DNA from: Rubritepida flocculans DSM 14296
Lineage (GTDB): Bacteria > Pseudomonadota > Alphaproteobacteria > Acetobacterales > Acetobacteraceae
Direction: 5' to 3'
Length of the DNA stretch: 64,000 nucleotides
Assembly: GCF_000425365.1 (NCBI RefSeq)
Contig: NZ_AUDH01000013.1
Span: 1 to 64,000, forward strand
Part shown: one piece after another, positions 4,774 to 57,628 of the stretch
Layout of the letters: every line of letters starts with the position of its first letter
Numbering within the stretch: the stretch's first letter is position 1
Made by a program: the position numbers and the translations under genes
Notes under the pieces: generated by a model
What the model was told of the DNA's origin: nothing
Databases searched by the model: none
What the model saw: only the letters and a program-made list of their open reading frames with translations

Positions 4774-4817
4774 ACCCGGCGGGCGCGATAGGTCCGGCGC
4801 AGCCGCCGGCCGTATCA
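4774..4817 (-). repeat. Element B fragment containing a stop codon
   Basis: Read on the minus strand it begins TGATACGGCCGGC and continues with GCCGGACCTATCGCGC, which matches the diverged copy at 23606-23684. The first three bases are the TGA stop of the minus-strand gene that ends at 4815. Confidence 0.7.
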
Positions 4818-5381
4818 GCTTCCCGCGATGCGCGCCGTGAAGCCCCCGATGAACAGGCCGAGCACCAGGTCGAGCAGCACGAACATCACCGCCGTCGGCC
4901 CCGCCACGGCCAGGGCCGCGCGCGCGACGAACCACTCGAGCCAGAGCGCATAGCCCAGCGCCACCAGCCCCAGCCCGTTGCCCAGCCAGTTCGGCAGGCC
5001 GAGCAGCGGCGGCAGCATCAGCGCCAGCAGCAGCAGATACTGCACGAGGTTGCACCAGTTCCAGGCCGCGATGAAATGCGGCCAATGCGCGCCGCGCTGC
5101 GCCTGCTCGGCCAGCAGCTTCGAGGCGAGCGCATACCCCGCCCAGGAGACGACATACCCCACCAGCTCCGCCGCGAGCGCGATGATCAGCCCGTTGCGCG
5201 GCTCGCCCTGCAGGGACCAGGAGAGCAGGCGCAGGCCCAGGAAGGCGGGAAGGCAGATCAGCGCGGCGCGGAAGGAGAAGCGCGCCGTCTCGATGTCGGG
5301 CGCGAGCAGCGCGAGCCCCTCCGGCCGGCCGCGCGCCAGCAGCAGCGCCGCGGCCAGGCCGTTGGGGATGCTCGGCGTCAC
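4815..5381 (-). CDS. Five-helix membrane protein of unknown function
   Basis: A 188-residue protein that I cannot assign. The GTG start at 5381 overlaps the dapE stop (GTGA), which argues for translational coupling. Five hydrophobic segments are visible at roughly residues 33-51, 62-83, 100-120, 127-146 and 150-170, with short loops, so it is an integral inner-membrane protein. A conserved-looking W-N-W motif precedes helix 3. It closes the HNH-dapD-dapE operon. Its stop is the first codon-sized piece of a repeat element B fragment. Confidence 0.75.
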   Translation of the reverse strand: MTPSIPNGLAAALLLARGRPEGLALLAPDIETARFSFRAALICLPAFLGLRLLSWSLQGEPRNGLIIALAAELVGYVVSWAGYALASKLLAEQAQRGAHWPHFIAAWNWCNLVQYLLLLALMLPPLLGLPNWLGNGLGLVALGYALWLEWFVARAALAVAGPTAVMFVLLDLVLGLFIGGFTARIAGS

Positions 5382-6532
5382 CCGAGGCACTCCTCGAGGA
5401 TCGCGCGATAGACGCCCGCGAGGGTGCGGAGGTTCTCCACCGAGGCGCGCTCGTCCACCTGGTGGCCGGTGGCGCCGACATCGCCGAACTCGGCCACCGG
5501 ACAATAGGCGCGGATGAACCGCGCATCCGAGGTGCCGCCGCCCGCGTTCAGCTCCGGCTCCTCGCCGGTGGTGCGGCGGATGGCGCGGATCAGCGCCTCC
5601 ACGAAGGGGCCGGGCTCGGTGAGGAAGGGGGCGGCGTTGCTCTCGATCTCGATGTCGTAGCGGCAGCCCGCGGCGCGCAGCGCGGCATGGAGGCGCTCGG
5701 TCAGGCTCTCGCGCGTGTGCAGGTCGTTGAAGCGGATGTTGAGCATGGCCCGCGCGGTGGCGGGGATCACGTTCGCCGCCCTGTTGCCGACGTCGAAGCC
5801 CGTCACCTGCAGAGTGGAGGGCGGGAAGAACTCCGTGCCCTGGTCGAGGGGCGCGGCGATGAGCGGGGCGAGGGCGGCCATCAGCCGGTGCACCGGGTTG
5901 TCGGCCTTCTGCGGCAGGGCGCTGTGGCCCTGCTTGCCGTGCACCGCGATGCGCGCGGTGAGCGAGCCGCGCCGGCCGATGCGGATCACATCGCCCACGC
6001 GCGCGAAGCTGCTCGGCTCACCCACCAGGGCCATGTCGGGCAGCAGGCCGCGCTCGGCGAGCCAGGGCATGACGCGCGCCACGCCGTCCACGCTGCGCGC
6101 CTCCTCATCGCCCGTGATCAGCAGGCTGATGCTGCCCGGATGGTCGGGGTGCGCGGCGAGATAATCCTTGAGCCCGGCGAGGAAGGCCGCCACGCCGCCC
6201 TTCATGTCGTTCGCACCGCGGCCGTAGAGCCAGCCCTCGCGCACCACGCCGGCGAAGGGGTCGTCGGTCCATTGCGAAGGGTCGCCGGGCGGGACCACAT
6301 CGGTGTGGCCGCAATACATGAAATGGGGCGAGCCGCTGCCGCGCCGCGCCCAGAGATTGTCCACCCGCCACTCCTCCGGGCCGAAGACCAGGCGCTCGCA
6401 GGCGAAGCCGAGGGATTCGAGGAAGCGCTGCACCACATCGAGCGCGCCGTGATCCGCCGGCGTGACGGAGGGGCAGCGGATCAGCGCCTGCGCGAGCGGG
6501 ATCGGGTCGGTCGGCGCGAGGGGATCAGTCAC
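5378..6532 (-). CDS. dapE: Succinyl-diaminopimelate desuccinylase
   Basis: A 384-residue M20-family zinc hydrolase that releases succinate from N-succinyl-LL-diaminopimelate in the lysine and peptidoglycan branch. The di-zinc site is intact: His76 in CGHTDVV, Asp109 in [10 protein letters not shown], and the Glu143-Glu144 pair in GDEEA. The start is GTG at 6532, which overlaps the end of dapD by 8 bases; no better start is present. With dapD upstream it supplies two consecutive steps of the succinylase route to meso-diaminopimelate. Confidence 0.97.
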
Positions 6533-7349
6533 GCAGCAGCTCGTTGATCGCGGTCTTGGCGCGGGTCTGCGCGTCCACGCGCTTGACGATCACGGCGCAG
6601 TAGAGCGAGGGGCCGGGCGAGCCGTCGGGCAGCGGCTTGCCGGGCAGGGAGCCGGGCACCACCACCGAATAGGCCGGCACGCGGCCCATGAAGACCTCGC
6701 CCGTCGCGCGGTCCACGATCTTCGTGGTGGCGCTGAGGAAGACGCCCATGGAGAGCACGCTGCCCTTCTCGACGATCACGCCCTCCACCACCTCGCTGCG
6801 CGCGCCGATGAAGCAGTCGTCCTCGATGATGACGGGGTTGGCCTGCAGGGGCTCCAGCACGCCGCCGATCCCCACGCCGCCCGAGAGATGCACGTTGCGC
6901 CCGATCTGCGCGCAGGAGCCGACGGTGGCCCAGGTGTCCACCATCGTCCCCTCGCCCACATAGGCGCCGAGATTCACGAAGGAGGGCATGAGCACCACGT
7001 TCGGCGCGATGTAGGCCGAGCGGCGGGCGATGGCGCCCGGCACGGCGCGGAAGCCCGCGGCCTTGAAGCGCGCCGCGTCCCAGCCCGCCCATTTCAGCGG
7101 CACCTTGTCGTAGGCGCCGGCGGCGGTGGCCATGGGCGCGCTGTCCTCCAGCCGGAAGGAGAGCAGCACCGCCTGCTTCAGCCACTGGTTCACCACCCAG
7201 CCCTGCGGCGTGGGTTCGGCGACGCGCGCCGCGCCGCGGTCGAGCAGGTCGAGGGCGGCCTCGATGGCCTCGCGGTCCGCGCCCTTCGTCGCGGGGGAGA
7301 GGCTGTCGCGCCGCGCCCAGAGGGCTTCGATGGTGGCTTGCAGGGACAT
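6525..7349 (-). CDS. dapD: Tetrahydrodipicolinate N-succinyltransferase
   Basis: A 274-residue acyltransferase that transfers succinate from succinyl-CoA to tetrahydrodipicolinate. The middle and C-terminal part shows a left-handed beta-helix of hexapeptide repeats (for example [18 protein letters not shown]) and the family stretch [20 protein letters not shown]-terminal residues 1-100 form the helical domain. It lies 58 bases after the HNH gene and overlaps dapE by 8 bases. Confidence 0.98.
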
Positions 7350-7407
7350 CAGACAAGCGGCTCCTGAATCGCGCCGCGTGATTCGCAGCGGGGCGAGGGC
7401 GAGTCAA

Positions 7408-7995
7408 TCAGCCCTGCTCGAGCTCCGAATCCCAGTAGAGGTAGTCGCGCCAGCTCTCGTGCAGGTGGTTGGGCGGGAAGGCGCGGCCATTCTCCTGCAG
7501 CTCCCAGCTCGTGGGCTGGCGGGGCTCCTGGCGGGGCAGCATGTTGCACTCGCGCGGCAGGCGGCTGCCCTTGCGCAGATTGCAGGGCCCGCAGGCGGCC
7601 ACGACATTCTGCCAGGAGGTGCGCCCCCCGCGCGAGCGCGGGATCACATGGTCGAAGGTGAGCTCCTGCGCGGGCTTCGCCTCGCCGCAGTACTGGCACT
7701 CGAAACGGTCGCGCAGGAAGACGTTGAAGCGCGTGAAGGCGGGGCGGCGCGCGGCGGGGATGTAGTCGCGCAGCGCGATGACCGAGGGCAGCCGCAGCGA
7801 GAAGGAGGGCGAGCGCACCTCCGTCTCGTATTCGCTCAGCACCGAAACGCGCTCCAGCACCACGGCCTTCACCGCATCCTGCCAGGACCACACCGAGAGC
7901 GGGAAATAGGAGAGCGGACGGAAATCCGCGTTCAGCACCAGGGCGGGGAAGCCGCCGGGGCCGGAGACCTGGGGGATGAGACTGCCGTCGGGCAA
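7408..7995 (-). CDS. HNH endonuclease
   Basis: A 195-residue protein with a zinc-ribbon HNH nuclease domain at about residues 105-150: CQYC, then FDHVIPRSRGG (catalytic His), then an Asn-containing stretch and CGPCN. The N-terminal part (PQVSGPGGFPALVLNADFRP) is the typical start of this alphaproteobacterial family. TTG at 7995 is chosen because GGAGGAG lies 8 bases upstream; a GTG at 8010 and a far-upstream ATG at 8178 remain possible but lack a ribosome binding site or would run into the gluQRS promoter. It heads the dapD-dapE operon. The family is widespread and chromosomal; its biological substrate is unknown. Confidence 0.85.
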   Translation of the reverse strand: MPDGSLIPQVSGPGGFPALVLNADFRPLSYFPLSVWSWQDAVKAVVLERVSVLSEYETEVRSPSFSLRLPSVIALRDYIPAARRPAFTRFNVFLRDRFECQYCGEAKPAQELTFDHVIPRSRGGRTSWQNVVAACGPCNLRKGSRLPRECNMLPRQEPRQPTSWELQENGRAFPPNHLHESWRDYLYWDSELEQG

Positions 7996-8198
7996 GCGAA
8001 GCTCCTCCACGTCTGGCGCGGCAGGAACCCCGGATGCCGGGAGCGGCGCGCTCCCGAGTCGGTTCGCCGCCACAACTGCATGGCCTGCATGACAGGCTTG
8101 CCGCAGCGCCGCAAGCCGTCGCGTGGTCGCCGGAGGCGGATTCACGGGCACGTCACGAAACCCTTGCGCGCCCGGCATGACGGCGCGACCAAGGGGCG

Positions 8199-9023: not shown

Positions 9024-9032
9024 CCTCGCGCC

Positions 9033-11982: not shown

Positions 11983-11985
11983 GCC

Positions 11986-12399
11986 GTGACGCGCCACGCC
12001 GCCTATCGCGCGAGCCTCTACCGCGCGGGCGCGGTGGCGGTGCGGGTGGGGCGGCGCAGCGCCTCGGCCGATCGCTGGCTGCTGCGGCATGGCGCGGCCC
12101 AGGGAGTCTTCCTCACCGCCTGGAACCCGCTCTCGCGCCCCATGCCGGGGCGCTGGAACGCGCGCGCCATGGCGGCGCTGCGCCGCGCCCTCGGCCCCGC
12201 AGCGCATGAGACAGGCGAGGGCGCGCTGGGCCGCTGGCGCGAGGCGATGCTGCTGGCCGCCCTCTCCCGCACCGCCGCGCGGCGCCTCGCCCGGCGCTTC
12301 CGCCAGGCGGCCGTGGTGCTCGTCCCGCGCGGCCGGCCCGCGCGGCTGCTCTACATCGCCGGGCCGCGGGCCAGCCCCGCGCCCCATGCCCCTGCGTAG
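11986..12399 (+). CDS. DUF3293 protein
   Basis: A 137-residue cytosolic protein with a GTG start three bases after the preceding stop. It carries the DUF3293 signature: a basic N-terminus, FLTAWNPLSRPM near residue 45 and an Asn shortly after (GRWNARAM). No function is established for this family. The final bases include the first copy of a TGCGTAG direct repeat that lies upstream of the marR gene. Confidence 0.8.
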   Translation: MTRHAAYRASLYRAGAVAVRVGRRSASADRWLLRHGAAQGVFLTAWNPLSRPMPGRWNARAMAALRRALGPAAHETGEGALGRWREAMLLAALSRTAARRLARRFRQAAVVLVPRGRPARLLYIAGPRASPAPHAPA

Positions 12400-12953: not shown

Positions 12954-12956
12954 GGC

Positions 12957-14735: not shown

Positions 14736-15124
14736 GCCTGACCTTCACGAACCCCGAGGGCGTGCGCGCCCCCGCCTCGCGCTATTCCCATGCCTGCCTG
14801 GTCGAGGGGCCGGGGCGGCGCCTCGTGATCTCGGGCCAGGTGGGCCTCGCCCCGGACGGCAGCCTGCCGGCGACCGCGGAGGGGCAGATCCGCCAGTCGC
14901 TGGCCAACCTCCGCACCATCCTCGCCGCGCACGGGATGGGCGTGCGCGACCTCGTGAAGATCACCGTGTTCCTGACCGACACGGCGCTGGTGAAGCCCTG
15001 GCGCGCGCTGCGCGACGAGGCGCTGGAGGGGCATGCGCCCACCTCCACCCTCCTCATCGTCGCGGGGCTCGCCGATCCGCGCTTTCTCGTGGAGGTCGAG
15101 GCGGAGGCGTTCCGGGCGGGCTAG
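14732..15124 (+). CDS. RidA-fold protein
   Basis: A 130-residue YjgF/YER057c/UK114-family protein. The family core ISGQVGLAPDG and the helix QIRQSLANLRTILAAHG are clear. RidA deaminases hydrolyse reactive enamines using an Arg in a V-A-R-L stretch (Arg105 in E. coli); by eye the equivalent here is V-A-G-L, so deaminase activity is doubtful and a different Rid subfamily is likely. ATG overlaps the lipoprotein stop. Its TAG lies in the CTAG that forms the outer end of element A. Confidence 0.9.
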   Translation: MSLTFTNPEGVRAPASRYSHACLVEGPGRRLVISGQVGLAPDGSLPATAEGQIRQSLANLRTILAAHGMGVRDLVKITVFLTDTALVKPWRALRDEALEGHAPTSTLLIVAGLADPRFLVEVEAEAFRAG

Positions 15125-15236
15125 ACAGAAACTGACACGCGGGCTCTGGCGCACCATCGGCATGCCGACCTCTCCACCAGCCAAACCATAGTGCCACAGT
15201 TTCATCCACGGCGGGTCGGGACCGCCGGTGGGTAAC
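15121..15236 (+). repeat. Element A, full copy
   Basis: A 116 bp module running from CTAGACAGAAACTGAC to GGTAAC. It contains the palindrome GGCATGCC and an imperfect stem CCAC-GGCGG / CCGCC-GTGG. Its left end supplies the TAG stop of the RidA-fold gene. It is fused to a full element B at 15237. Confidence 0.9.
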
Positions 15237-15363
15237 TGATACGGTCGGCATGACATGCCGACCGTATCGCGCGCAGGGTTGGCGTGGCGGCTGCGCGCCA
15301 AAACAAAGGCATACCAGCGGCCGCTCCGCCTCCTGAGGAATCCAAATCAGCGGCCGCTGGTAT
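15237..15363 (+). repeat. Element B, full copy
   Basis: A 127 bp module made of three nested stems: a 15-bp perfect arm pair around 15238-15268 (GATACGGTCGGCATG and its complement), GCGCGCAG...CTGCGCGC, and a 15-bp outer pair ATACCAGCGGCCGCT...AGCGGCCGCTGGTAT. It agrees closely with the copies at 43619-43745 and 57502-57628, which are also exactly 127 bp. The 15125-15433 gap holds only this composite and the leader of the Bug gene. Confidence 0.92.
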
Positions 15364-15433
15364 AACAGGGCCGCGCCCATTGATCGGCGCGCGCGGGGCG
15401 GGCGAAGCTTCCCTCCCCGGAAGGACACCGCCC

Positions 15434-16424: not shown

Positions 16425-17378
16425 GTGGAGGAGTGGCCCCGCCCCCTGCTGGGCAGCGAGAGCCCGCGCTTCTCCGGCCCCGCGAGCTTCTTCCGCCTGC
16501 CGCTGCGCCGCGCGGGCCTCGACATCGCGCTGTTCGGCGTGCCCTTCGACGGGGCGACGACGCTTCGCCCCGGCGCGCGGCTCGGCCCGCGCGCGCTGCG
16601 CGAGGCCTCGACGCTGATCCGCCCGCGCCACGGGCGCAGCGGCCTCGCGCCCTTCGATCTCTGCCGCGTGGCGGATGCAGGGGATGCGCCGGTGCGCCCC
16701 TTCGACATCCCGGCCACCCTCGCGAGCGTGGAGGGCTTCGTGGCAGAGCTCTGCGCCGGCGGCGCCGCGCCGCTGATGGCCGGCGGCGACCATCTGATGA
16801 GCCTGCCCGTGCTGCGCGGCCTGGCGCGGGCCGGCGCCGCGCCGCCCCCGCCCTGGGGGATGGTGCATCTCGACGCCCATTCCGACACGGCCGAGAGCTT
16901 CCTGGGCGCGCGCTTCACCCATGGCACGCCCTTCCGCCGCGCGGTGGAGGAGGGGCTGCTCGACCCCGCCCGGGTGGTGCAGATCGGCCTGCGCGGCGGG
17001 GCCTATGGCCCCGATGACCTGGGCTGGGCGCGCGCGGCCGGGATCACGCTGCTCGACATGCCCGCGGTCGAGGCGCTGGGCGCGGCCGGGCTGGCGGCGC
17101 GGGCGCGCGAGGTGGTCGGCGCCGCGCCCTGCTGGGTGAGCTTCGACCTCGACGCGCTGGACCCGGCCTTCGCCCCCGGCACGGGCACGCCCGAATGGGG
17201 CGGGCTGACGCCGCGCGAGGTGCTGGGCGTGCTGGACGGGCTGCGCGGCGCGCGGGTGATCGGCGGCGATGTGGTCGAGCTCTCGCCGCCGCATGACCCG
17301 GCCGGGGTCAGCGCCCTGGCCGGGGCCACGGTGCTGTTCGAGCTGCTCTGCCTGATCGCGGCGGCGCGGGCGGGGTGA
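16425..17378 (+). CDS. speB: Agmatinase-type ureohydrolase
   Basis: A 317-residue manganese hydrolase of the arginase/agmatinase family. All metal ligands are visible: His123 in GGDH, Asp150, His152 and Asp154 in LDAHSD, and Asp241 and Asp243 in SFDLDALDP. GGDH favours agmatinase or a related guanidinohydrolase (guanidinobutyrase, guanidinopropionase) over arginase. Start is GTG at 16425. Co-transcription with a Bug receptor suggests that the receptor may bind a guanidino or related nitrogen compound, but that is inference. The TGA stop is the start of an element B fragment. Confidence 0.9.
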   Translation: MEEWPRPLLGSESPRFSGPASFFRLPLRRAGLDIALFGVPFDGATTLRPGARLGPRALREASTLIRPRHGRSGLAPFDLCRVADAGDAPVRPFDIPATLASVEGFVAELCAGGAAPLMAGGDHLMSLPVLRGLARAGAAPPPPWGMVHLDAHSDTAESFLGARFTHGTPFRRAVEEGLLDPARVVQIGLRGGAYGPDDLGWARAAGITLLDMPAVEALGAAGLAARAREVVGAAPCWVSFDLDALDPAFAPGTGTPEWGGLTPREVLGVLDGLRGARVIGGDVVELSPPHDPAGVSALAGATVLFELLCLIAAARAG

Positions 17379-17411
17379 TACGGGCGGCATCATACCGGCG
17401 GCCGCTGGGAT
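17376..17411 (+). repeat. Element B, internally deleted copy
   Basis: TGATACGGGCGGCAT (left end of element B) is joined directly to ATACCGGCGGCCGCTGG (its right-hand stem). The middle is missing. The TGA is the agmatinase stop codon. It lies between convergent genes. Confidence 0.75.
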
Positions 17412-17438
17412 GATGCGATCGCCCGGCTCGGCCCGCGA

Positions 17439-21923: not shown

Positions 21924-22706
21924 ATGGCGACCTTCACCCTTCCCCGCAACTCCGTCGTCGGCGAGGGCAAGACCTTCAAGGCCCCGCCCGGGGCCACGAA
22001 CGTCAAGGCGTTCAAGATCTACCGCTGGGATCCGGACGGCGACGCGAACCCGCGGCTGGACACCTACGAGGTGGACCTCGACGCCTGCGGGCCGATGGTC
22101 CTGGACGCGCTCATCAAGATCAAGAACGAGGTGGACAGCACGCTCACCTTCCGCCGCTCCTGCCGCGAGGGCATCTGCGGCTCCTGCGCGATGAACATCG
22201 ACGGGCTGAACACGCTCGCCTGCCTCAAGCCCATCGAGGACGTGAAGGGCGATGTGCGCATCCACCCGCTGCCGCACATGCCGGTGGTGAAGGACCTGGT
22301 GCCGGATCTCACGCAGATCTACGCGCAGTACCGCTCCATCGAGCCCTGGCTGAAGAGCGACACGCCCCCCCCGCCCGACGAGGAGCGCCGCCAGTCCAAG
22401 GAGGAGCGCGCGAAGCTGGACGGGATGTGGGAGTGCATCCTGTGCTTCTGCTGCTCCACCTCCTGCCCCAGCTACTGGTGGAACGGCGACCGCTACCTCG
22501 GCCCCGCCGTGCTGCTCGCCGCCTATCGCTGGATCGCCGACTCGCGCGACGAGGCGACGGGCGAGCGCCTCGACCAGCTCGAGGACCCGTTCCGCCTCTA
22601 CCGCTGCCACACCATCATGAACTGCACGCGGACCTGCCCGAAGGGGCTGAACCCCGCGGAGGCGATCGGCAAGATCAAGCAGCTCATGGTCGAGCGGCAG
22701 GGCTAG
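21924..22706 (+). CDS. sdhB: Succinate dehydrogenase iron-sulfur subunit
   Basis: A 260-residue electron-transfer subunit. Three cluster motifs are intact: the [2Fe-2S] site in [16 protein letters not shown] with a later Cys, the [4Fe-4S] site in [12 protein letters not shown], and the [3Fe-4S] site in [21 protein letters not shown] precedes the ATG. It ends the sdh operon; a hydrolase-like gene follows after five bases. Confidence 0.99.
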
Positions 22707-22711
22707 CGCGC

Positions 22712-23482
22712 ATGGAGCCGGGGGCGGGGCTGGCGGAGTTCCTCCGCGGCCGCCGCGCCCTTCTCTGCTACGGGCTGATGGGCGATGCGGTGGTGCGCCT
22801 CGGCCTCGACTACATGGACGCGCACGCCGAATGGCTGGCCGCGCAGGGCGCGCGGCCCGAGGTGCTGAAGGTTCCCACCGCCGACCCCGTGGCCGCCAAT
22901 GCCGAGCGCCTCGCCGCCGCGCTGAGGGACGGCCCGCCGGGCGCGCTGGTGATCGCGCACAGCAAGGGCGGGGTGGAGGCGCTGGCGGCGCTCGTCGCGC
23001 CCGAGACCGCCGCGCGCTGCGCCGCCTTCCTCGCCTTCCAGTCGCCCTTCTACGGCAGCGAGGTGGCGGATCTCGTGACCGAATCCCGCCCGCTGACGGG
23101 GCTTGCCCTCGCCACGGCCCGGCTGTTCCGCAGCGGCAGCGGCCAGGGCCTGCGCGACCTCACCACCGCCGCGCGAGCGGCCTGGATGGCCGAGCACGCC
23201 GAGGCCGTCCAGCGCCTCGTGCGCAGCCTGCCGGTGGTGACGGTGGCCAGCCATTTCCGCCCGCGGCTGCGCATCGCGCGCGGCCCGCACCTGGCCGCGC
23301 TGGCGCTCTGGCTACAGGACAAGGTGGGGCCCAATGACGGGCAGGTGGCCGTCACCTCCGCCCTGCTGCCCGGGGCGCGGCACCTGGTCGAGCAGGGCAG
23401 CCACATCGCCCTCGTCACGCGCGGGCCGGGGCAGGACCCGCAGGGTGCGCTGCGGCGCGCGCTGCTCGCCGCGCTGGTGTGA
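22712..23482 (+). CDS. Alpha/beta-hydrolase-like protein
   Basis: A 256-residue cytosolic protein that looks like an alpha/beta hydrolase. The nucleophile elbow is IAHSKGG with Ser84; the first Gly of the usual G-x-S-x-G is Ala. A C-terminal histidine in QGSHIAL is a candidate for the triad. Five bases separate it from sdhB, so it is probably co-transcribed with complex II, but there is no evidence for a role there. Its TGA stop is the first three bases of a full element B. Confidence 0.75.
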   Translation: MEPGAGLAEFLRGRRALLCYGLMGDAVVRLGLDYMDAHAEWLAAQGARPEVLKVPTADPVAANAERLAAALRDGPPGALVIAHSKGGVEALAALVAPETAARCAAFLAFQSPFYGSEVADLVTESRPLTGLALATARLFRSGSGQGLRDLTTAARAAWMAEHAEAVQRLVRSLPVVTVASHFRPRLRIARGPHLAALALWLQDKVGPNDGQVAVTSALLPGARHLVEQGSHIALVTRGPGQDPQGALRRALLAALV

Positions 23483-23605: not shown

Positions 23606-23684
23606 TGATACGGGCGGCCGAATGGCCGGACCTATCGCGCACGCCAGGCTGGCGGGCAGCGGCGTGCCGGAACACCGGCATGAC
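23606..23684 (+). repeat. Diverged second element B
   Basis: It starts again with TGATACGGGCGGC immediately after the previous copy and shares GGCCGGACCTATCGCGC with the fragment at 4774-4817. Together the two copies fill most of the 242-base gap before the DUF1489 gene. Confidence 0.65.
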
Positions 23685-36450: not shown

Positions 36451-37184
36451 GGCTGTCCGTCAACATCGACCATGTCGCCACGCTGAGGAACGCGCGCGGC
36501 GGCGCGCATCCCTGCCCGGTGGCGATGGCGCAACTCTGCCTGGATGCGGGGGCCGAGGGCATCACCTTCCACCTGCGCGAGGACCGCCGCCACATCCGCG
36601 ACGCCGATGTGCGCCGCCTGCACGCGGAGCTGCGCACGCGCCTCAACTTCGAGATGGCCGCGACCCCGGAGATGGTGGGCATCGCCGAGAGCCTGGCGCG
36701 CTCTCCCCGGGGCCTCGCCGCCTGCTGCTTCGTGCCGGAGAAGCGCGAGGAGCTGACCACCGAGGGCGGGCTCGACGTGCTGCGCGCCGGGCCCTTCCTC
36801 GCCGAGGCCATCGCGCGCATGGCCGCGCAGGGGACGGAGGTGAGCCTCTTCGTGGAGCCGGACGCGGCGCAGATCGAGGCCGCCGCGCGGCTCGGCGCCA
36901 AGGCGGTGGAGCTGCACACCGGCAGCTATGCGGACGCGGCGCCCGAGGCGCGCCCGGCGCTGGTCGCGCGGCTCGCGGAGGGCGCGCGGGTGGCGGCGGG
37001 GCTCGGCCTCGCGGTGCATGCGGGGCACGGGCTCTCCTTCGAGACGATCGGGCCCGTGGCGGCGATCCCCGAGATCTGCGAGGTCTCCATCGGGCATTTC
37101 CTGGTGGGGGCGGCGCTGGCCGAGGGGTTCCCCGGGGCGGTGGCGCGCATGCGCGGGCTGATCCGGACCGCGCGCGGGGGGTGA
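36447..37184 (+). CDS. pdxJ: Pyridoxine 5'-phosphate synthase
   Basis: A 245-residue TIM-barrel enzyme that condenses the PdxA product with deoxyxylulose 5-phosphate. SVNIDHVATLRNARGG at the start, FHLREDRRHI and GHGLS are signature regions. Overlaps pdxA. The TGA stop is also the first three bases of a diverged element B (TGATCCGGGCGGC). Confidence 0.98.
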   Translation: MRLSVNIDHVATLRNARGGAHPCPVAMAQLCLDAGAEGITFHLREDRRHIRDADVRRLHAELRTRLNFEMAATPEMVGIAESLARSPRGLAACCFVPEKREELTTEGGLDVLRAGPFLAEAIARMAAQGTEVSLFVEPDAAQIEAAARLGAKAVELHTGSYADAAPEARPALVARLAEGARVAAGLGLAVHAGHGLSFETIGPVAAIPEICEVSIGHFLVGAALAEGFPGAVARMRGLIRTARGG

Positions 37185-37276
37185 TCCGGGCGGCCTGCGA
37201 GGCCGACCGCGTCCTGCCGGCCGGCACGGCGGTGGCTGTTCACCGCGCGTCAAGCTTTCTCCGCCAGCATGCCGGG
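37182..37276 (+). repeat. Diverged element B
   Basis: It opens TGATCCGGGCGGCCTGCGAGG and ends with a CGGGATGAC-like tail comparable to the CCGGCATGAC at the end of the copy at 23606-23684. It contains the pdxJ stop codon and fills the gap to the next small gene. Confidence 0.5.
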
Positions 37277-37948: not shown

Positions 37949-37965
37949 TCGGTCCGGCCTGACCG

Positions 37966-38020
37966 CCGCCCGTATCGTGCCGGCGGCCGCTTGCCGTCGC
38001 TCCCGAAAAGGCGGCGCGGC
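37966..38020 (-). repeat. Element B fragment
   Basis: On the minus strand GGCAAGCGGCCGC is followed by GATACGGGCGGC, the same order as at 23590-23620. It lies between the convergent small-peptide gene and ispG. Confidence 0.6.
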
Positions 38021-38091
38021 CGCCGCACCGGCGCGCGGTGGCCGGGCGGCGAGCAGGGCCGGCACGCCCGGCACCGCCCGCGGCGGGCCGC

Positions 38092-39316: not shown

Positions 39317-40366
39317 TCAGGGCCGCCCCATCGGCGGCGCGCCGGCGGGGGCGGGCGCCGGGGCGGGCTGCAGCCGCGCCGGCGCGGGCGGGGCGGCCGC
39401 GGGCGGGGCCGGGGGGGCGGCGGGCGGCCGTGCGGCGGCCGGCGCGGGCGCGGCGGCGGGCGGCGGCGCGGGCGAGGGCGGCGGCGCGGGCCGGTTGCGC
39501 AGCTCGGCCGGGTTGAGCGGCACGTCGCGCCGCACCCCCTGGGTGGCGGCGAAGACCTGCGAGACCTGCCCATCCACCAGCACGTCGATGTTCTGGGCCG
39601 CGCCGGTGGAGAGCAGCAGCCCCGTGCGGTCGGCGGGCACGGTCCAGCTCTCGCCCGGCCGCATCACCCGCGCGAGCAGGTTCTGGTTCGCGCGCGGGTC
39701 GCGCACCTGCACCCAGGCCTCGCCCTTGGCGCGGATCACCATGCGCCCCTCGCCGGGGGCCGGGGCCGAGGGCTGGGCGGGGGCGGGCGCGGGCGGCGGC
39801 GGCACCTGCACGGGAACCGGGGTGGGCACGGGCAGGCTGGGGCTGGGCGGGGCGGCGGCCTGCGGCACGGGGGCGGCGGGCCCCTCCGGGCGCAGCGCCT
39901 CGCCCTCGCGCACCGCGCTCTCGAGGCGCGGCGGCGGGGGGGGCACTGCGTCCACCGTCCGGTCGCCCGAGCCGGTCCAGTTGTACCAGGTGATGTAGCT
40001 GCCGATGGCCACCGCCGCCCCCAGCAGCACCAGCACACCGGCGGGGAAGCCGCGCTCGGGCACCGGCTCGGGAAAGACCAGATCCTGCCGCTTTCCGGAG
40101 GCCGCCTCGCGGAAGCGGCGCACCATGTCGTTCACGTCGAGGCCGAGCGCGCCCGCATAGTTCCGCACGAAGCCGATGGCGTAGGCGGGCGAGGGCAGAT
40201 CCTTCAGCCGCCCCTCCTCCAGCGCGATGAGATAGACGCGCCGGATGCGGAGCTGGGCCGCCATGTCCTCGATGGAGGCGCCGAGGGCGAGCCGCGCGTC
40301 GCGCAGCTCCTCGCCCAGCCGCGCGGCGTCCACCGGCGGGGCCTCGGGGGTGCGGAAACGCTTCAT
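39317..40366 (-). CDS. rodZ: RodZ-like cell-shape protein
   Basis: A 349-residue bitopic protein. Residues 13-85 form the RodZ-type helix-turn-helix ([30 protein letters not shown]) that binds MreB in the cytosol, followed by one membrane helix near 105-125 ([17 protein letters not shown]), a Pro-rich periplasmic linker and a DUF4115 beta-domain (residues about 215-290). A further 50 residues of Pro/Ala repeats follow. ATG 40366 is preferred over an in-frame GTG 12 bases upstream. Confidence 0.9.
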
Positions 40367-42777: not shown

Positions 42778-43500
42778 ATGGACGGGCGAGACAACCGGCC
42801 CCCCGCCACGGGGGCCAGCGCCGACGCGGCGGAGGTGGCGAAATTCGACGCGCTGGCCGCCGAGTGGTGGAACCCGCGCGGGCCCATGGCCCCGCTGCAC
42901 GCCATGAATCCCGCCCGCATGGGCTGGATCGCCGCGCGCCTCGGCCCGCTCGAGGGCCTGCGGGTGCTGGATGTGGGCTGCGGGGCGGGGCTCGCCTCGG
43001 AATGGCTCGCCCGGCGCGGGGCGGCCGTCACCGGGCTCGACGCCGCCGGGGCCGCGCTGGAGGCCGCACGCGCCCATGCCGCCGCCGCCGGGGTGGCGGT
43101 GGACTACCGCGAGGGCACGCCGGAGACGCTGGGGGAGACGGGCTTCGACGCGGTGCTGGCGCTGGAGGTCATCGAGCATGTGCCGCCCGCCGAGCGGCCG
43201 GGCTTCCTCGCCGCCCTCGCCCGCGCCGTGCGGCCGGGGGGGCAGGTGATCCTCTCCACCCTCAACCGCACGCCGCGCGCCTGGCTGACAGCGAAGCTCG
43301 GCGCGGAATACCTGCTGCGCTGGTTGCCCCCGGGCACGCATGAGTTCCGCCTCTTCCTCCGCCCCGCCGAGCTCGGCGCGCTGATGCGCGGGGCGGGGCT
43401 GGTGGTGGAGGAGGTGGCGGGACTCTCGCCCAGCCTGCGCGAGGGCTTCGCCGTCACGCGCGACGTGGGGGTGAACTACCTGATGGCAGGGCGGCGGTAG
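42778..43500 (+). CDS. ubiG: Ubiquinone O-methyltransferase
   Basis: A 240-residue enzyme that performs both O-methylations of the ubiquinone ring. Motif I VLDVGCGAGLASEWLARRG and the downstream EVIEHVP and STLNRTP regions are typical UbiG. The N-terminal FDALAAEWWNPRGPMAPLHAMNP is diagnostic. Its TAG is followed directly by the CTAG end of element A. Confidence 0.96.
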   Translation: MDGRDNRPPATGASADAAEVAKFDALAAEWWNPRGPMAPLHAMNPARMGWIAARLGPLEGLRVLDVGCGAGLASEWLARRGAAVTGLDAAGAALEAARAHAAAAGVAVDYREGTPETLGETGFDAVLALEVIEHVPPAERPGFLAALARAVRPGGQVILSTLNRTPRAWLTAKLGAEYLLRWLPPGTHEFRLFLRPAELGALMRGAGLVVEEVAGLSPSLREGFAVTRDVGVNYLMAGRR

Positions 43501-43616
43501 CTAGACAGAAACTGACACGCGGGCTCTGGCGCACCATCGGCATGCCGACCTCGCCACCACCCAAACCATAGTGCCACAGTTTCATCCACGGCGGGTGGGG
43601 ACCGCCGGTGGGTAAC
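43501..43616 (+). repeat. Element A, full copy
   Basis: A 116 bp copy from CTAG to GGTAAC, in the same orientation as that at 15121 and differing from it at only a few positions. It starts one base after the ubiG stop codon. Confidence 0.92.
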
Positions 43617-43618
43617 TC

Positions 43619-43745
43619 ATACCAGCGGCCGCTGATTTCGACTCCTGAGGAGCCGGTGCGGCCGCTGGTATGCTTCTGTTTTGGCGCGCAGCCGCCACAC
43701 CAACCCTGCGCGCGATACGGTCGGCATGTGATGCCGACCGTATCA
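43619..43745 (-). repeat. Element B, full copy, reversed relative to element A
   Basis: A 127 bp copy with ATACCAGCGGCCGC first and CCGTATCA last, the opposite order to the A-B fusion at 15121-15363. All three stems are retained. With element A it fills most of the 292-base gap between ubiG and the antiporter gene. Confidence 0.92.
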
Positions 43746-43792
43746 GCCCGGCGGCCGCCGGTGTCATGGCCGCGACGTCAGCCCCGCCCGCC

Positions 43793-45511
43793 TCACCGCA
43801 CCCCCCTCCGCTCCGCCACCACCGCGCGCGCCGCCTCCTCCGGAACGCCGAGGCGCAGCAGCGCCGCCTCGCCCAGCAGCAGCGCGGCCTCGCGCACCTC
43901 GGGCACCACATCGCTCGCCCCGGCGGCGCAGAGCTCGCGCGCATGCGCCTCGTCGCGCACGCGGGCGAGGATGGGCAGGCGCGGGAAGCCCTGGCGCGCG
44001 GCGGCCACCAGGGCGCGGGCCTGCGCGGCGTCGTTCACCGTCACCACCAGCAGCGCGGCGCGGGCGGCCCCGAGGCGGGCCAGGATTTCCACCTGCGTCG
44101 CCTCGCCATACCAGACGGCCGCGCCCTGCCGGCGCAGCGCCGCCACCCGCGCCGCGTCGCGATCGAGCGCCACATGCGGCACGCGCTGGCCGTCCAGCAC
44201 CTCGCCCACCAGCCGCCCCACCCGGCCATAGCCCACGATGATGACATGGTCGCGCAGCCCCTCATCGGCCTCGGGCGCGGGGGCCTCGCCCTGCCCCGGC
44301 GGCGCGAGCCGCGCGCCGAGTCGCCGGCCCAGGCCGGCCAGCGCGGGCGTGGCCAGCATGGTCAGCGCCACCACGATGGCGGCGAACTGCGCCGTCTCCG
44401 GCGGCAGGACGGCGAGCGAGGCGGCCAGCGCGACGACGATGAAGCCGAACTCGCCCCCCTGGCCGAGCAGCAGCGCCGCCTCGGCCGCCACCTCGCGCCG
44501 CTCGCCCCAGGCGCGCATCAGCGCATACAGCAGCGCCGCCTTCACAAGGACGAGGCCCGCCACCGTGCCGGCGAGGGCGAGCGGGGCGCGCGCCACCGCG
44601 CCGAGGTCGATCATCAGCCCCACGCTGACGAAGAAGACGCCGAGCAGCAGCCCCTTGAAAGGCTCCAGATCCACCGCGACCTGGGCGCGGAACTCCGTCT
44701 CGGCCAGCAGCACCCCCGCCAGGAAGGCGCCGAGCGCGAGGGAGAGCCCCGCCGCCTCGGTGGCGATGGCGGTGCCGATGGCGGCGAGCAGCACCGCCGC
44801 CAGGAAGGCCTCGCGACTCTCGGTCGCCGCCACGGCGCGCAGCAGCGGGCGCATCACGAGCCGCCCCGCCAGCACGATGAGCATGATGGCCAGCGCCGCC
44901 TTGCCCAGCGCCAGCAGCACGTCGGCCGCGATCTCGCCGCCGCTGGGCGCCGCGACCCCGGCGGCTCCGAGCAGCCCCACCAGCAGCAGCACCGGCACCA
45001 CCGCCAGATCCTGGAACAGCAGCACCGCGAAGGCCGCACGCCCGGTGGGCGTGCCCAGCCGCCCGCGCTCGGCGAGGAGCTGCACGACGATGGCGGTGGA
45101 GGAAAGGGCAAGCCCCGCCCCCAGCACCACCGCCGCCGCGGGCGCATGGCCCATGCCCCAGGCCAGGGCGGCGATGACGGCCGCCGTCAGCCCCACCTGC
45201 GCGCCGCCGAGGCCGAAAACGAGCCCGCGCATGCGCCACAGCCTCTCCAGCGAGAGCTCGAGCCCGATCATGAACAGCAGGAAGGCGACGCCGAGCTCTG
45301 CGGCGAGCTTCATCCCCTCCGTCTGGCGCAGCACCAGCAGCCCCGCCCAGGAGCCCTCCGGCGCCAGCGCGCCCAGCCCGTGCGGGCCGATCAGCAGCCC
45401 GACGGCGAGGAAGCCCAGCACGGTGCTGATGCGCGCGCGGTGGCAGGCCAGCGCCACCAGCCCGGTGGCGCCCAGCAACACCACCACCTCGCGCAACTCG
45501 GCGGCCACCAT
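43793..45511 (-). CDS. CPA2-family cation:proton antiporter with TrkA-N domain
   Basis: A 572-residue membrane protein of the KefB/KefC/YbaL type. Residues 1-390 form about twelve helices of a Na+/H+ exchanger domain, including [11 protein letters not shown] and [10 protein letters not shown]. Residues about 410-530 form a Rossmann TrkA-N domain with GYGRVGR that binds NAD(H) and regulates transport. It probably exports K+ or exchanges K+/Na+ for H+. No separate ancillary oxidoreductase is adjacent. ATG 45511 is used. Confidence 0.93.
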
Positions 45512-50015: not shown

Positions 50016-50022
50016 CTCAGCC

Positions 50023-50604: not shown

Positions 50605-50607
50605 GCC

Positions 50608-51957: not shown

Positions 51958-51962
51958 GCGCC

Positions 51963-52973: not shown

Positions 52974-53040
52974 TCATCCCCCGCGCGGGGCTTTTCACGG
53001 CCCCGCGCGCGGTCCATCTCTGGGGGGAGGAGTTCCCCCC

Positions 53041-54018: not shown

Positions 54019-55049
54019 GCGCCAGCCAGGAGATCGCCTACCTCCTGCACTCCCGCGGCGTGGCGCGGGAGCTCGGGGCCTGGGTGGTCGGCCTCGCCTT
54101 CGGACGGGAGGGGCGCTCGCTCGCCTTCGGGCTCGGCGATGGCAGCGTGCATGTGGCGGATGCGCGCGCCCCGGCCGGCGACTGGCTGCGGGTGGAGGCG
54201 CACAAGGGCGCGGTGCTCGCCCTCTGCGCCGATGTGGCCGAGGGCGTGCTGACGGGCGGCGACGACGGCCGCCTCGCCCGCGTCACCCCGGCCGGCCAGG
54301 TGGAGGAGGTGGCGGGCTTCGGCCGCAAATGGGTGGAGCATGTCGCGGCCCATGAATCGGGGGTGCGCGCGGCGGCCGTGGCCAAGGCCGTGCATGTGCT
54401 GGACGCGAAGGGCCAGGCGCTGAAGTCGCTGCCGCACCCCTCCACCTTGGCGGGCCTCGCCTTCGACGCGAAGGGCAAGCGCGTGGCGGCCAGCCACTAC
54501 AACGGCGCCTCGCTCTGGTTCGTCGCCGCGCGCGAGGACAAGCCGCGGCTGCTGGAATGGAAGGGCAGCCACCACGCCATCGCGATCCACCCCGAGGGGA
54601 CGCATGTCGTCACCGCCATGCAGGAGAACGCGCTGCATGGCTGGCGCCTCGCGGACGGGCAGCACATGCGCATGTCCGGCTATCCGGCCAAGACGCACAG
54701 CCTCTCCTTCAGCGCCAAGGGCCGCTGGCTCGCCACCAGCGGGGCGGAGAGCGTGGTGCTCTGGCCCTTCTTCGGGGGCGGGCCGATGGGCAAGGCGCCC
54801 ACCGAGCTTGCGGGCGGGGATTCCGTGCTCTGCACCCGGGTCGCCTGCCATCCGCAGCACGAGATGGTGGCCGCGGGCTTCGAGGACGGTCTCGTGCTGC
54901 TGGCCGACATCGCCTCGGGCCGGGTGCTGCCCATCGCCCCGCCGGGGCGCGGCGCGGTCTCGGCGCTGGGCTGGAACGCGAATGGCGCGCTGCTCGCCTT
55001 CGGCACCGAGCAGGGCTTCGCCGCGCTGCTCGACCTTTCGAAGAAGTGA
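54015..55049 (+). CDS. WD40-repeat protein
   Basis: A 344-residue protein built of about seven WD40-like blades, with no signal peptide. Repeats show the usual VTGLAFD...LAVASHYNG pattern (for example [20 protein letters not shown] near 135). It starts with GTG that overlaps the CobW stop, so the two are coupled; a beta-propeller partner for the GTPase or for a metal-loading target is the simplest inference. The remainder of the sequence is unremarkable. Confidence 0.88.
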
Positions 55050-55054
55050 CGCCG

Positions 55055-55874
55055 ATGATCCTGGACACGCCCCTTCTGCGCATGCCCGCCCTCGGCCTCG
55101 GCACCTGGCCGATGCGCGGGGCGGAATGCCAGGCGGCGGTGGAGGGCGCGCTGGCGCTGGGCTACCGCCACATCGACACGGCCGAGATGTACGGCAACGA
55201 GGCGGAGGTGGGGGCCGCGCTGCGCGCGGCCGGCCTGCCGCGCGGCGAGGTCTTCGTCACCACCAAGATCTGGTGGGACAAGCCCGACGGGCCGCGCTTC
55301 CGCGCCGCCGCCCTCGCCTCCCTCGAGCGGCTCGGCCTCGATGCGGTGGATCTGCTGCTCGTCCACTGGCCCTCCCCCGAGCTCGACCTGCCTTCCGTGC
55401 TGGAGGCGCTCGCGCGGCTGCGCGAGGAGGGGCGGGCCAAGGCGGTGGGCGTCTCCAACTTCCCGGCCGGGCTGCTGCGCCGCGCGCTCGACCTCGCCAT
55501 CGCCCCGCTCGCCTGCCTGCAGGTGGAGCACCACGCGATGCTCGACCAGTCGCGCCTGCTGGCGCTGACAGAGGCGGCGGGGATGGTGCTGACGAGCTAC
55601 ACCCCCCCTCGGCAAGGGCGAGGTGGCGGCCCACCCCGCGGTGCGCGCCATCGCCGCGCGCCATGGCGCGACGGGGGCGCAGGTGGCGCTCGCCTATCTG
55701 CTCGGCAAGGGGCGGGTGGCGGCCGTGCCCAAGGCGGCGAGCGCGGCCCGCCAGGCGGAGAACCTGGGCGCGCTCGGGCTGCGGCTCGCGCCCGAGGATG
55801 TCGCGGCGCTGGACGCGCTGCCGAAGAACCGCCGCTTCGTGAACCCCGCCTTCGCGCCCGACTGGGACGGCTGA
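55055..55874 (+). pseudogene. Aldo/keto reductase broken by a frameshift
   Basis: The first part (55055 to about 55601) encodes a normal aldo/keto reductase N-terminus, with DTAEMYGNE (catalytic Asp and Tyr), a TTKIWW Lys and a VHWP His. At 55602-55608 a run of seven C shifts the frame; the rest (YTPLGKGEVAAHPAVRA ... NRRFVNPAFAPDW) continues in the next frame to 55874. Removing one C gives a complete 272-residue protein of normal length. Cause may be a genuine mutation, slippage or a sequencing error in the homopolymer. It lies five bases after the WD40 gene. Confidence 0.85.
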
Positions 55875-57002
55875 TCACCCCTCCCAGCGCGCCAGCCAGC
55901 CGAGGTCGTGGCAGAGGATCAGGTCCTCGTAGCGGAGGGGCGACATCAGCACCTCGTGCACCAGGTCCGAGCGCGCGAAGGGGCCCTCCACCACCCGCGG
56001 CCGCCCCTCGCGCAGCACCACGAGATGGGGGAAGAGCGCCGCCCACTCCTCCATCACGCGGAAGGGGTTGCGGTCGGCGAAGCGCATCAGCGTCCAGAGA
56101 TTGAACTCCACCTGCACGAGCGGGCGGAAGCGGCGCAGCGCCTCGCGCCCGCCCGCCAGCGCGGCCGGCTCGCTGCCCTCGAGGTCGAGCTTCACGAGGT
56201 CGAGCCGCGGCAGGGAGGCGGCCACGGCGTCGAGGGTTGTGACGGGCACGCGCTGGTCCTCGGCCCAGCCATGGGGCGCCGGGGCGTCGGGCCCCGCGAG
56301 GAAGGCGACGGAGGCGTTGTCGCGCGGGACGCGCAGCACCGCCTCGCCCGGGGCGGCGCCCAGCGCCTCCGCCCGGCATTCGGCGCGCGCGAGCCCGTGC
56401 CGCGCCAGGTTCTGCGCGAGATGCGCGCGCAGCGCCGCATTGGGCTCGAAGGCGAGCAGCCGCGCGTGGCGCGGCGCGCCGAGGCCCATGGCGAGCGCGC
56501 CGAGCCCGAGATTCGCCCCGCCATCCAGCAGCACCGCCCCCTCCCCGCCATCGGGCAGCAGGGCGCGCGTCACGCGCAGCAGCCCCTCCTGCGCGGCGGC
56601 CTCGGCGGCCAGCGCGCGGGCGTAGTCATCGCCCGCCGGGGCGGAGAGCGACAGCGCACGCCCCCCGAGGCGCACCGGCGGCGGCGCCTCGGGGAAGGCG
56701 GCGAGTAGGCCCTCGCGCAGCGCGGCGATCTCGGCCGGCGGGGCGGGCGCATCGGGCGGCGGGCGGGCGCCGAAACGGAGCTGCCGCCAGGCGTCGAGCG
56801 CCTCGGCGTCCGGCGCGGCGGCGATGCGCGGCGCGAAGGGCCGGCCGCGCAACGCCCGGTGCTCGGGGCTGGCGAGGAAGGCGGCGGCGAGGGCGCGCGG
56901 ATCATCCGCCCCCTGCCAGTTCGCGACGACTTCCGCGCTCTCGGGCTCGCGGCCTAAGATGATTCTGTAGGCCCAGACGACCACATGCTCGGCGATCGGC
57001 AT
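55875..57002 (-). CDS. FkbM-family methyltransferase
   Basis: A 375-residue protein. The C-terminal two thirds is an FkbM methyltransferase: LLDGGANLGLGALAMG (motif I), AFEPN (motif II) and LDLEGSE. The N-terminal 70 residues include ILGREPESAEVVANW and FLASPEHRAL, resembling DUF4214/phycobilisome-linker-like repeats often attached to glycan or S-layer proteins. Substrate is unknown, but exopolysaccharide or glycan modification is plausible. Stop fuses with that of the reductase as TGATCA. Confidence 0.85.
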   Translation of the reverse strand: MPIAEHVVVWAYRIILGREPESAEVVANWQGADDPRALAAAFLASPEHRALRGRPFAPRIAAAPDAEALDAWRQLRFGARPPPDAPAPPAEIAALREGLLAAFPEAPPPVRLGGRALSLSAPAGDDYARALAAEAAAQEGLLRVTRALLPDGGEGAVLLDGGANLGLGALAMGLGAPRHARLLAFEPNAALRAHLAQNLARHGLARAECRAEALGAAPGEAVLRVPRDNASVAFLAGPDAPAPHGWAEDQRVPVTTLDAVAASLPRLDLVKLDLEGSEPAALAGGREALRRFRPLVQVEFNLWTLMRFADRNPFRVMEEWAALFPHLVVLREGRPRVVEGPFARSDLVHEVLMSPLRYEDLILCHDLGWLARWEG

Positions 57003-57069
57003 GCTGGCTTCGGCTCCCTGCGCTTGCCGGGCCAGGCGCCCGGCCATGACGAACGAGGACGGCACGAGC

Positions 57070-57483
57070 ATGGCAGACACGGACGAAGACGGCGAAGAGC
57101 TGGACCTCGGCATCTCGCTCGAGGTGGTGGCGACGGTGGTGGACCTCGCCCATGCGGTCCAGGACGCCGAGGAGGCGGAGATCGGCCGCCCCGAGGACGA
57201 CGAGGAGCTGGACGACGACGAGGAGAACGAGATCACCGAGGAGATGCTGACCGACTACATCGACGAGCTGAACGAGGAGCAGCAGAACGCCCTCATCGCG
57301 CTCGCCTGGGTCGGCCGCGGCGACTACGAGCCGGAGGAATGGGAGGAGGCGCTGAAGCTCGCCGCCGAGCGCAACGCGCGCGGCGAGGCCTCGAGCTACC
57401 TCGCCGGCATGGACGGGCTGGGCGATCTGCTCTCCGAGGGGCTCGCCGCCTTCGGCATCGCGGTGGAGGAGGTGGAGCGCTGA
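57070..57483 (+). CDS. DUF3775 acidic protein
   Basis: A 137-residue, very acidic protein (an Asp/Glu-rich stretch covers residues 35-65) followed by the DUF3775 core (YIDELNEEQQNALIALAWVGRGDYE, WEEALKLA). No function is known. The ATG at 57070 follows CGAGGACGG; an in-frame ATG at 57046 is possible. Divergent from the FkbM gene across 67 bases. Confidence 0.82.
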   Translation: MADTDEDGEELDLGISLEVVATVVDLAHAVQDAEEAEIGRPEDDEELDDDEENEITEEMLTDYIDELNEEQQNALIALAWVGRGDYEPEEWEEALKLAAERNARGEASSYLAGMDGLGDLLSEGLAAFGIAVEEVER

Positions 57484-57501
57484 GGCGCTCCACGGCCCCT
57501 C

Positions 57502-57628
57502 ATACCAGCGGCCGCTGATTTCGACTCCTGAGAAGTCGGTACGGCCGCTGGTATGCCTCTGTTTTGGCGCGCAGCCGCCACACCAACCCTGCGCGCGATA
57601 CGGTCGGCATGTCATGCCGACCGTATCA
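57502..57628 (-). repeat. Element B, full copy containing the metH stop
   Basis: A complete 127 bp copy, with ATACCAGCGGCCGC at the left and CCGTATCA at the right. The final TCA (57626-57628) is the TGA stop of metH on the minus strand. It lies between the DUF3775 gene and metH. Confidence 0.93.

What the first reader, a model, noticed from the sequence alone, without database searches (positions are those of the whole stretch)
4774..57628. A dispersed palindromic module (element B) whose first bases are the stop codon of the gene beside it
A 127 bp module beginning TGATACGG(T/G/C)CGGC occurs complete at 15237, 43619 and 57502, near-complete at 23480 and in fragments at 4774, 17376, 23606, 37182 and 37966. 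The TGA that opens it is the actual stop codon of five unrelated genes: the membrane protein ending at 4815, agmatinase (17378), the hydrolase (23482), pdxJ (37184, as TGATCC) and metH (57626). Each module has three nested stems. Such regular coincidence with stop codons suggests that it inserts at, or is copied onto, the TGA of genes and then serves as a 3' end. I know of no described repeat with this property, but I cannot search.
Basis: partly seen in the sequence, partly recalled or inferred. Interest (0 to 1): 0.85.

Follow-up and report, generated by a model that had tools for sequence, protein, structure and literature searches.

The report
Mobile DNA repeat landing on stop codons
This is a small non-coding jumping DNA element, present in many copies, that lands on the three letters TGA or TAA and duplicates them, so it can sit exactly on a gene's stop codon without changing the protein; which enzyme moves it is unknown.

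Summary
The window's genome holds 117 exact module starts and at least 41 long matches (capped scoring). Of 113 starts read in context, 64 are the in-frame stop codon of the gene before them; no other frame exceeds 4. In 50 orthologs of eight such genes from eight same-genus genomes the protein ends at the same position; one (rho in G018) seems to carry a diverged copy. SoxZ, CynS-like and MetH give DNA-level empty sites. Of 69 own modules with both ends, 61 read TGA...TGA, 2 TAA...TAA, 6 differ; of 68 elements from other genomes, TGA/TGA 53, TAA/TAA 7, TTA/TTA 3, unequal 5. So it duplicates a TNA target, here nearly always TGA. Stops are hit largely because they are harmless TGA sites at gene ends, mostly convergent; a 3.5- to 4.7-fold excess over other TGA/TAA stays unexplained. 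Related elements occur in 37 of 99 family genera, own included: core and hairpin shapes stay, end sequences change. No transposase was found. New variant of CIR/MITE-type elements.

The parts
57500..57628 (-). Complete module (126 bp + duplicated TGA) at the metH stop; left TGA 57626-57628 is the stop codon, right TGA 57500-57502
   Evidence: empty site in same-genus genome G018
43617..43745 (-). Complete module, TGA at both ends; not at a stop codon; the right end abuts element A
15237..15365 (+). Complete module, TGA left and TAA right; lies after an element A copy, not at a stop codon
23480..23608 (+). Complete module; left TGA is the stop of the ORF 22427-23482; right TGA is the start of a second, partial module
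23606..23648 (+). Start of a second, partial module in tandem (first-hairpin variant)
17376..17412 (+). Fragment with both terminal motifs but no core; TGA is the stop of the arginase-family gene
4746..4817 (-). Degenerate copy; TGA 4815-4817 is the stop of the ORF 4815-5504
37182..37242 (+). Decayed copy (TGATCCGG) on the pdxJ stop
37965..38025 (-). Fragments of first and third hairpins
15122..15236 (+). Element A (separate element) between the gene end (A's TAG is the gene's stop) and the module's TGATACGG
43502..43618 (+). Element A against the other end of a module (TCATACC)
395..816 (-). Three tandem 140-bp units of element A, each carrying the first 13 bases of the module

Best explanation
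The module is a miniature, non-coding mobile element: hairpin 1 (TAC...GTA foot), a conserved core stem (GCGCGC-AGGGTTGG..GGCGGCT-GCGCGC), an A-rich linker and hairpin 3 (TAC...GTA foot). An unidentified enzyme acting in trans inserts it into a TNA trinucleotide (here almost only TGA, sometimes TAA) in one orientation and duplicates that trinucleotide. On a stop codon the result reads gene-TGA-element-TGA, so the protein is untouched. Insertions inside genes are lost by selection; those at gene 3' ends, above all convergent ones, persist, and there the commonest same-strand TGA is the stop codon. SHOWN: insertion at the native stop, trinucleotide duplication, high copy number, family-wide architecture, and no matched TCA, TTA or TAG pair in the own stretches read. 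INFERRED: an enzyme in trans, selection as the main filter, and any effect of the hairpins on mRNA.
For: 117 exact starts in 3.83 Mb. In-frame stop at 64 of 113 sites, other same-strand frames 0 and 4. All 50 orthologs recovered for eight genes stop at the same position; SoxZ, CynS-like and MetH flanks close up in the same-genus genome G018 (3 of 6 sites tried). Equal trinucleotides at both ends in 63 of 69 own modules and 63 of 68 others, TAA/TAA and TTA/TTA pairs included. CDS-internal TGA/TAA: 2 insertions against 5,305 free sites; intergenic divergent 1 against 88, tandem 10 against 203, convergent 7 against 23; stops 65 against 182. Of TGA/TAA stops, those facing a convergent gene are hit in 37 of 63, those before a co-directional gene in 26 of 177 (OR 8.3, p = 7e-11).
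Against: No transposase or autonomous partner was found: no PF01797 match in the own genome, a match in 1 of 21 genus genomes, and no gene-bearing copy in the own stretches or at the sites checked in G105. With gene configuration held equal, TGA/TAA stops are hit more often than other TGA/TAA (OR 4.7, p = 0.0018 convergent; OR 3.5, p = 0.0008 tandem; an earlier count that included TAG stops gave about 3). Plain tolerance does not predict this. If only 'TNA' mattered, TCA should be as common a target as TGA; it is not in this genome, and the strand rule has no known cause. Six of 69 own modules and 5 of 68 others have unequal ends.
Confidence: 0.78

Rival explanations
1. The moving machinery recognises stop codons or gene ends as such, for example through transcription, termination or a bound factor, and TGA is only part of the signal.
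For: Excess of stops over other TGA/TAA in the same gene configuration (OR 4.7 and 3.5); in the high-GC relatives G140 14 of 23, G110 5 of 7 and G095 4 of 6 copies sit on stops, although stops are 34 of 235 and 24 of 189 of the called stop-plus-intergenic TGA/TAA there, element-borne ones included.
Against: G105 1 of 13 at a stop; matched TTA and TCA pairs; no use of TAG seen; same-strand TGA/TAA just downstream of stops hit at a similar rate (7 of 41 against 65 of 247).
Confidence: 0.2
2. The element is kept at stops because it works as a 3' end: a hairpin beginning at the stop codon that ends or protects transcripts or stalls ribosomes.
For: Strong bias to convergent gene ends; the first stem includes the G and A of the stop codon; REPs within 15 nt of a stop are reported to stall ribosomes in E. 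coli (passages of PMC12306157); on the opposite strand hairpin 3 is followed by a T-rich stretch (reverse complement of the linker).
Against: 26 of 63 stop insertions are followed by a co-directional gene; a terminator scan found none at the metH copy, and at 43400-43900 two sites, both inside element A and not in the module. Bias to convergent ends is equally expected from tolerance.
Confidence: 0.3
3. An ordinary REP/BIME family spread by a REP-associated tyrosine transposase (RAYT).
For: Palindromic units, high copy number, tandem copies, and another element inserting at its ends.
Against: No Y1 transposase match in this genome; no GTAG foot in the printed copies; a 3-bp duplication, whereas IS200/IS605 members are described as not generating larger target duplications (passage of PMC2817692).
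Confidence: 0.08
4. The stop-codon coincidence is accidental.
For: None beyond gene density.
Against: 64 of 113 in frame against 168 of 4,000 control TGAs from the same stretches; unchanged protein ends in relatives.
Confidence: 0.01

Closest known systems
CIR elements of Caulobacter/Brucella (Chen and Shapiro 2003, not held; read through the review PMC2229807, sections 4 and 7)
   Same: About 110 bp, alphaproteobacterial, non-coding, two long hairpin arms joined by a linker, GANTC at the loop of one arm, many copies, mechanism of movement unknown
   Different: Here a third, conserved core stem; a demonstrated 3-bp duplication (CIR: '?'); insertion on stop codons; GANTC in only 40 of 69 own modules; no sequence comparison with CIR could be made
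Bacterial MITEs (ERIC, Correia/NEMIS, RUP; sections of PMC2229807 and passages of PMC10969869)
   Same: Small, non-coding, dispersed, target duplication, mostly outside genes
   Different: Ends are two unlike hairpins sharing only TAC/GTA feet, not a terminal inverted repeat; the middle is conserved and the ends vary, the reverse of what I recall as usual; no parent transposon found
MIRU of mycobacteria (one passage in PMC12548453; the 'DTGA' site is recalled)
   Same: Small repeat that inserts at a translation signal with little effect on the gene
   Different: MIRUs are described as inserting at start codons and carrying a coupled ORF; this one lands on stops and no such ORF is claimed
REP/BIME elements and RAYTs (passages of PMC3733652 and PMC2817692)
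   Same: Palindromic, abundant, near gene 3' ends
   Different: No GTAG foot, no Y1 transposase match in this genome, target duplication present
IS elements that target REPs, incl. the IS110 family (passages of PMC1525189)
   Same: Element A sits at a module end in 21 of 21 right ends found in the fetched stretches, as IS110 members do in REPs
   Different: This concerns element A, not the module itself

Membership tests
Miniature mobile element (MITE in the broad sense) | Non-coding, under about 200 bp, many dispersed copies | tested here: met
Miniature mobile element (MITE in the broad sense) | Target-site duplication on insertion | tested here: met
   63 of 69 own, 63 of 68 other, DNA-level empty sites in 3 of 6 tried
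Miniature mobile element (MITE in the broad sense) | Terminal inverted repeat | tested here: not met
   Only TAC/GTA is shared between the two ends; each end is its own hairpin
Miniature mobile element (MITE in the broad sense) | Autonomous parent with matching ends | tested here: inconclusive
CIR | Two long hairpin arms joined by a linker, about 110 bp | tested here: met
   plus an extra core stem
CIR | GANTC at the loop of one arm | tested here: inconclusive
   45 GANTC in 69 own modules, 40 with at least one, shuffle mean 19, highest 28; 27 in 28 elements of other loci, 20 with at least one, shuffle mean 10, highest 21; rows are related and position in the loop was not scored
CIR | Sequence homology to CIR1-CIR4 | not testable with these tools
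   Original paper not held; the class-wide model search matched only the own genome among 190
REP/BIME with RAYT | RAYT (Y1 transposase) in the genome | tested here: not met
   1 of 21 genus genomes has a match
REP/BIME with RAYT | GTAG or CGTC tag at one foot of the palindrome | tested here: not met
   Foot is T(G/A)ATAC in the printed copies, which were selected by that motif
Rfam families | Match at gathering score | tested here: not met
   No family in the window

The most novel reading that the evidence does not exclude
A class of miniature elements whose ends are recognised by hairpin shape and foot (TAC...GTA), not by sequence: in 20 loci from different genomes the outer ten positions of the two end hairpins pair 9.55 and 9.7 times out of ten on average, while 20 and 16 different arm sequences occur, and the constant part is the core in the middle. 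The enzyme would read the core and the end shapes, cut TNA on a defined strand, and use stop codons as safe landing sites; it may belong to no described transposase family.
Probability: 0.3. Interest if true: 0.8.

Novelty: new variant of a known kind. Interest (0 to 1): 0.58.

Why it matters
It gives a worked case, with empty sites, of a bacterial repeat that can colonise stop codons at no cost to the protein, because the duplicated target is itself the stop codon. The conserved-middle, variable-end anatomy poses a testable question: what enzyme recognises ends whose sequence changes from genus to genus? It would also explain why some genes in this family carry large hairpins starting exactly at the stop codon, with possible effects on translation and mRNA ends.

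Tried and rejected
RAYT mobility: rejected after PF01797 searches. IS1031/IS5 parent (TNA duplication recalled, not from a call): an IS-like end of the GAGTCTGTCTCGAAA type is visible at C1:118, unlike the module's end; a paper search for the TNA rule gave nothing usable. Autonomous copy: four long end-to-end spacings in the own stretches; their frames looked like ordinary genes or a contig edge by eye (no family search was run on them). In G105 the end pattern gave complete copies, a solo hairpin, one diverged copy and what look like chance matches; three of the odd places were read, others not. Wider target motif: positions +5 and +7 after the stop differ from control stops, partly because another module follows in tandem, so no rule is claimed. 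Rfam: none. Plasmid and phage collections: no match; one IMG/VR contig holds the core, not followed. Paper searches on repeats at stop codons listed nothing that I recognised as this element or this behaviour; I saw listings and a few passages, and only open-licence papers are held.

Weak points. The codon model is home-made, trained on 129 ORFs of this genome and used unchanged on other genera; gene calls are approximate. The 88 stretches (400 kb of 3.83 Mb; 108 of the 117 exact sites) were chosen because they hold the element, so occupancy rates are inflated and only ratios are used. One search scored 40 of 204 candidates and missed, for one, the window copy at 23480, so 41 is a lower bound. 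My site patterns required T(G/A)A at the left end; a scan open to any left triplet of the same stretches found no matched TCA, TTA or TAG pair. In one search, 14 of 82 elements had unclear ends and were dropped, and two of the seven TAA/TAA pairs (L266, L269) have the same flanks, so are not independent. In one search, 2 of 24 loci were dropped for lack of a core match, and two more. Core conservation there is inflated because the elements were found through the core. Searches counted TAG stops among the free stops; one search repeats the tests without them and strengthens the excess at stops, for which I raised the gene-end rival from 0.15 to 0.2 and lowered my reading from 0.8 to 0.78. Rho in G018 is probably not an empty site; the model scan of the 50 ortholog loci found no clear module (best E 0.024) but missed that place, so diverged copies elsewhere cannot be excluded.
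Full report
WHAT IS THERE. The motif and the listed coordinates are real. A model of the module finds four complete copies in the window and several relics. A complete copy is TGA, hairpin 1 (TACGGTCGGC...GCCGACCGTA), TC, the core stem GCGCGCAGGGTTGG..GTGGCGGCTGCGCGCC, an A-rich linker and hairpin 3 (ATACCAGCGGCCGC...GCGGCCGCTGGTA), followed by TGA. The three stems are side by side (37 predicted pairs). Two sizes exist, the two trinucleotides lying about 126 or 163 bp apart; the longer carries an inner hairpin in the core stem. The genome holds 117 exact TGATACGGNCGGC and at least 41 matches covering 87 or more of the 127 positions (40 of 204 candidates were scored).

STOP CODONS. I fetched stretches around the sites (88 pieces, 400 kb, 108 of the 117 exact sites) and trained a codon model on 129 long ORFs. 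Of 113 starts T(G/A)ATACGGNCGGC, 64 are the in-frame stop of coding sequence before them, 0 and 4 are in the other same-strand frames, 4 face the opposite strand, 15 are non-coding, 15 follow element A, 8 follow another module and 3 are at contig edges. Of 4,000 control TGAs sampled from 6,101 in the same stretches, 168 (4.2%) are in-frame stops. The link is not accidental. In the same-genus genome G018, 8 of 11 printed copies also open on an in-frame stop.

EMPTY SITES. For eight genes with the module on the stop (SoxZ-, EttA-, GuaA-, Rho-, Lpd- and CynS-like, MetH and an aldehyde dehydrogenase; names by resemblance, only MetH checked with Pfam) I compared the last 60 residues with eight same-genus genomes. 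Fifty orthologs were read (2 to 8 per gene): in all 50 the protein stops at the same position. A model scan of these 50 loci found no clear module (best E 0.024). One exception by eye: after the rho stop in G018 a stretch TGATACC...GGTATGA with a similar inner hairpin looks like a diverged long copy, so that site is probably shared, not empty. At the DNA level six own sites with the element taken out were aligned with G018: SoxZ and CynS-like align through a single TGA into the downstream DNA; MetH aligns through a TAG into the following DNA; EttA, Rho and ALDH give no clear alignment past the stop.

DUPLICATION. Among 69 own modules with both ends, 61 read TGA/TGA, 2 TAA/TAA and 6 are unequal. 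A covariance model (R1, 32 sequences) found related elements in 37 of 100 genomes of the family, 37 of 99 genera, the own genome included, and only in the own genome among 190 of the class. Of 82 elements read from relatives, 68 had clear ends: TGA/TGA 53, TAA/TAA 7, TTA/TTA 3, unequal 5. A further set recovered by the exact core in named genomes shows more TTA/TTA and TAA/TAA, one TCA/TCA and some unequal pairs. The covarying end triplets fix a 3-bp duplication of TNA, strongly biased to TGA in this genome.

WHY STOPS. In the own stretches, TGA/TAA stops carry the element in 65 of 247 cases, convergent intergenic TGA/TAA in 7 of 30, tandem intergenic in 10 of 213, divergent in 1 of 89; inside CDS there are 2 insertions against 5,305 free sites. 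TGA/TAA stops facing a convergent gene are hit in 37 of 63, those before a co-directional gene in 26 of 177. Same-strand TGA/TAA within 60 bp after a stop: 7 of 41, not different from stops (p = 0.25). Within one configuration stops keep a 4.7-fold (convergent) and 3.5-fold (tandem) excess in odds. In G105 (GC 64% in the fetched stretches) 1 of 13 copies is at a stop; in G140 14 of 23, G110 5 of 7, G095 4 of 6; over all 68 scored elements 32. The simplest account is TGA/TAA-directed insertion filtered by selection, with an unexplained preference for stops.

FAMILY ANATOMY. Over 22 loci from different genomes the core is 89% identical on average (65% for shuffled partners), hairpins 1 and 3 only 60% and 59% (51% and 50% shuffled; the core figure is inflated because elements were found through it). 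In 20 of these the outer ten positions of hairpin 1 pair in 9.55 of ten and of hairpin 3 in 9.7 of ten, with 20 and 16 different arm sequences. Shape and the TAC/GTA feet are kept while sequence is not.

MOVER. None found. No Y1 transposase match in this genome, one of 21 genus genomes has one, and no gene-bearing copy appeared in the places examined. The 3-bp duplication and the lack of a GTAG foot speak against RAYT-type movement.

COMPARISON. The closest described repeat is CIR of Caulobacter and Brucella (review PMC2229807, sections 4 and 7 read): two hairpin arms with a linker and GANTC in a loop. GANTC is enriched here but absent from 29 of 69 own modules. MIRUs are said to insert at start codons (one passage of PMC12548453). 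My searches listed no report that I recognised as this stop-codon behaviour (open-licence papers only).

Noticed in passing
window 1-47, 395-816, 15122-15236, 43502-43618; 30 matches in the genome: Element A (TAGACAGAAACTGACACG...GGTGGGTAAC): of 21 right ends in the fetched stretches 19 lie against the module's TGATACG and 2 against TCATACC, and its TAG is an in-frame stop in 9 of 15 copies. It is also the end of a larger IS at contig ends whose reading frame begins MEVLHPRCAGLDVHKDSV, which looks like an IS110-family transposase start (recalled motif; no Pfam hit for 42 residues). A looks like a miniature of an IS that targets module ends.
   Followed up: partly
G000:C44:11521-11649 (locus L146): A module copy lies inside the first part of a gene (VRAVYDAVG...GRWYEDIMATRG); because it adds 126 bp the frame stays open through it. 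Further on the coding signal changes frame, so the gene may be broken or misassembled.
   Followed up: partly
G018 loci L179, L218, L225, L228 and own C1:376531, C1:446008, C14:51380, C3:267736: Some insertions seem shared between the two genomes at the same gene ends (by eye), so the family was active before and after they split.
   Followed up: no
G105:C1:2040250-2040290 (locus L303): A solo first hairpin between TGA and TTA without core or third hairpin, perhaps an excision or deletion trace.
   Followed up: no
IMG/VR contig IMGVR_UViG_3300036987_000503 (locus L448): The core sequence occurs once on a viral-catalogue contig; could be a provirus edge.
   Followed up: no
window 39335-39813: Dense GC-rich short repeats of the GGCGGG/GCGGCC kind in a stretch covered by long ORFs, perhaps a low-complexity protein region.
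   Followed up: no
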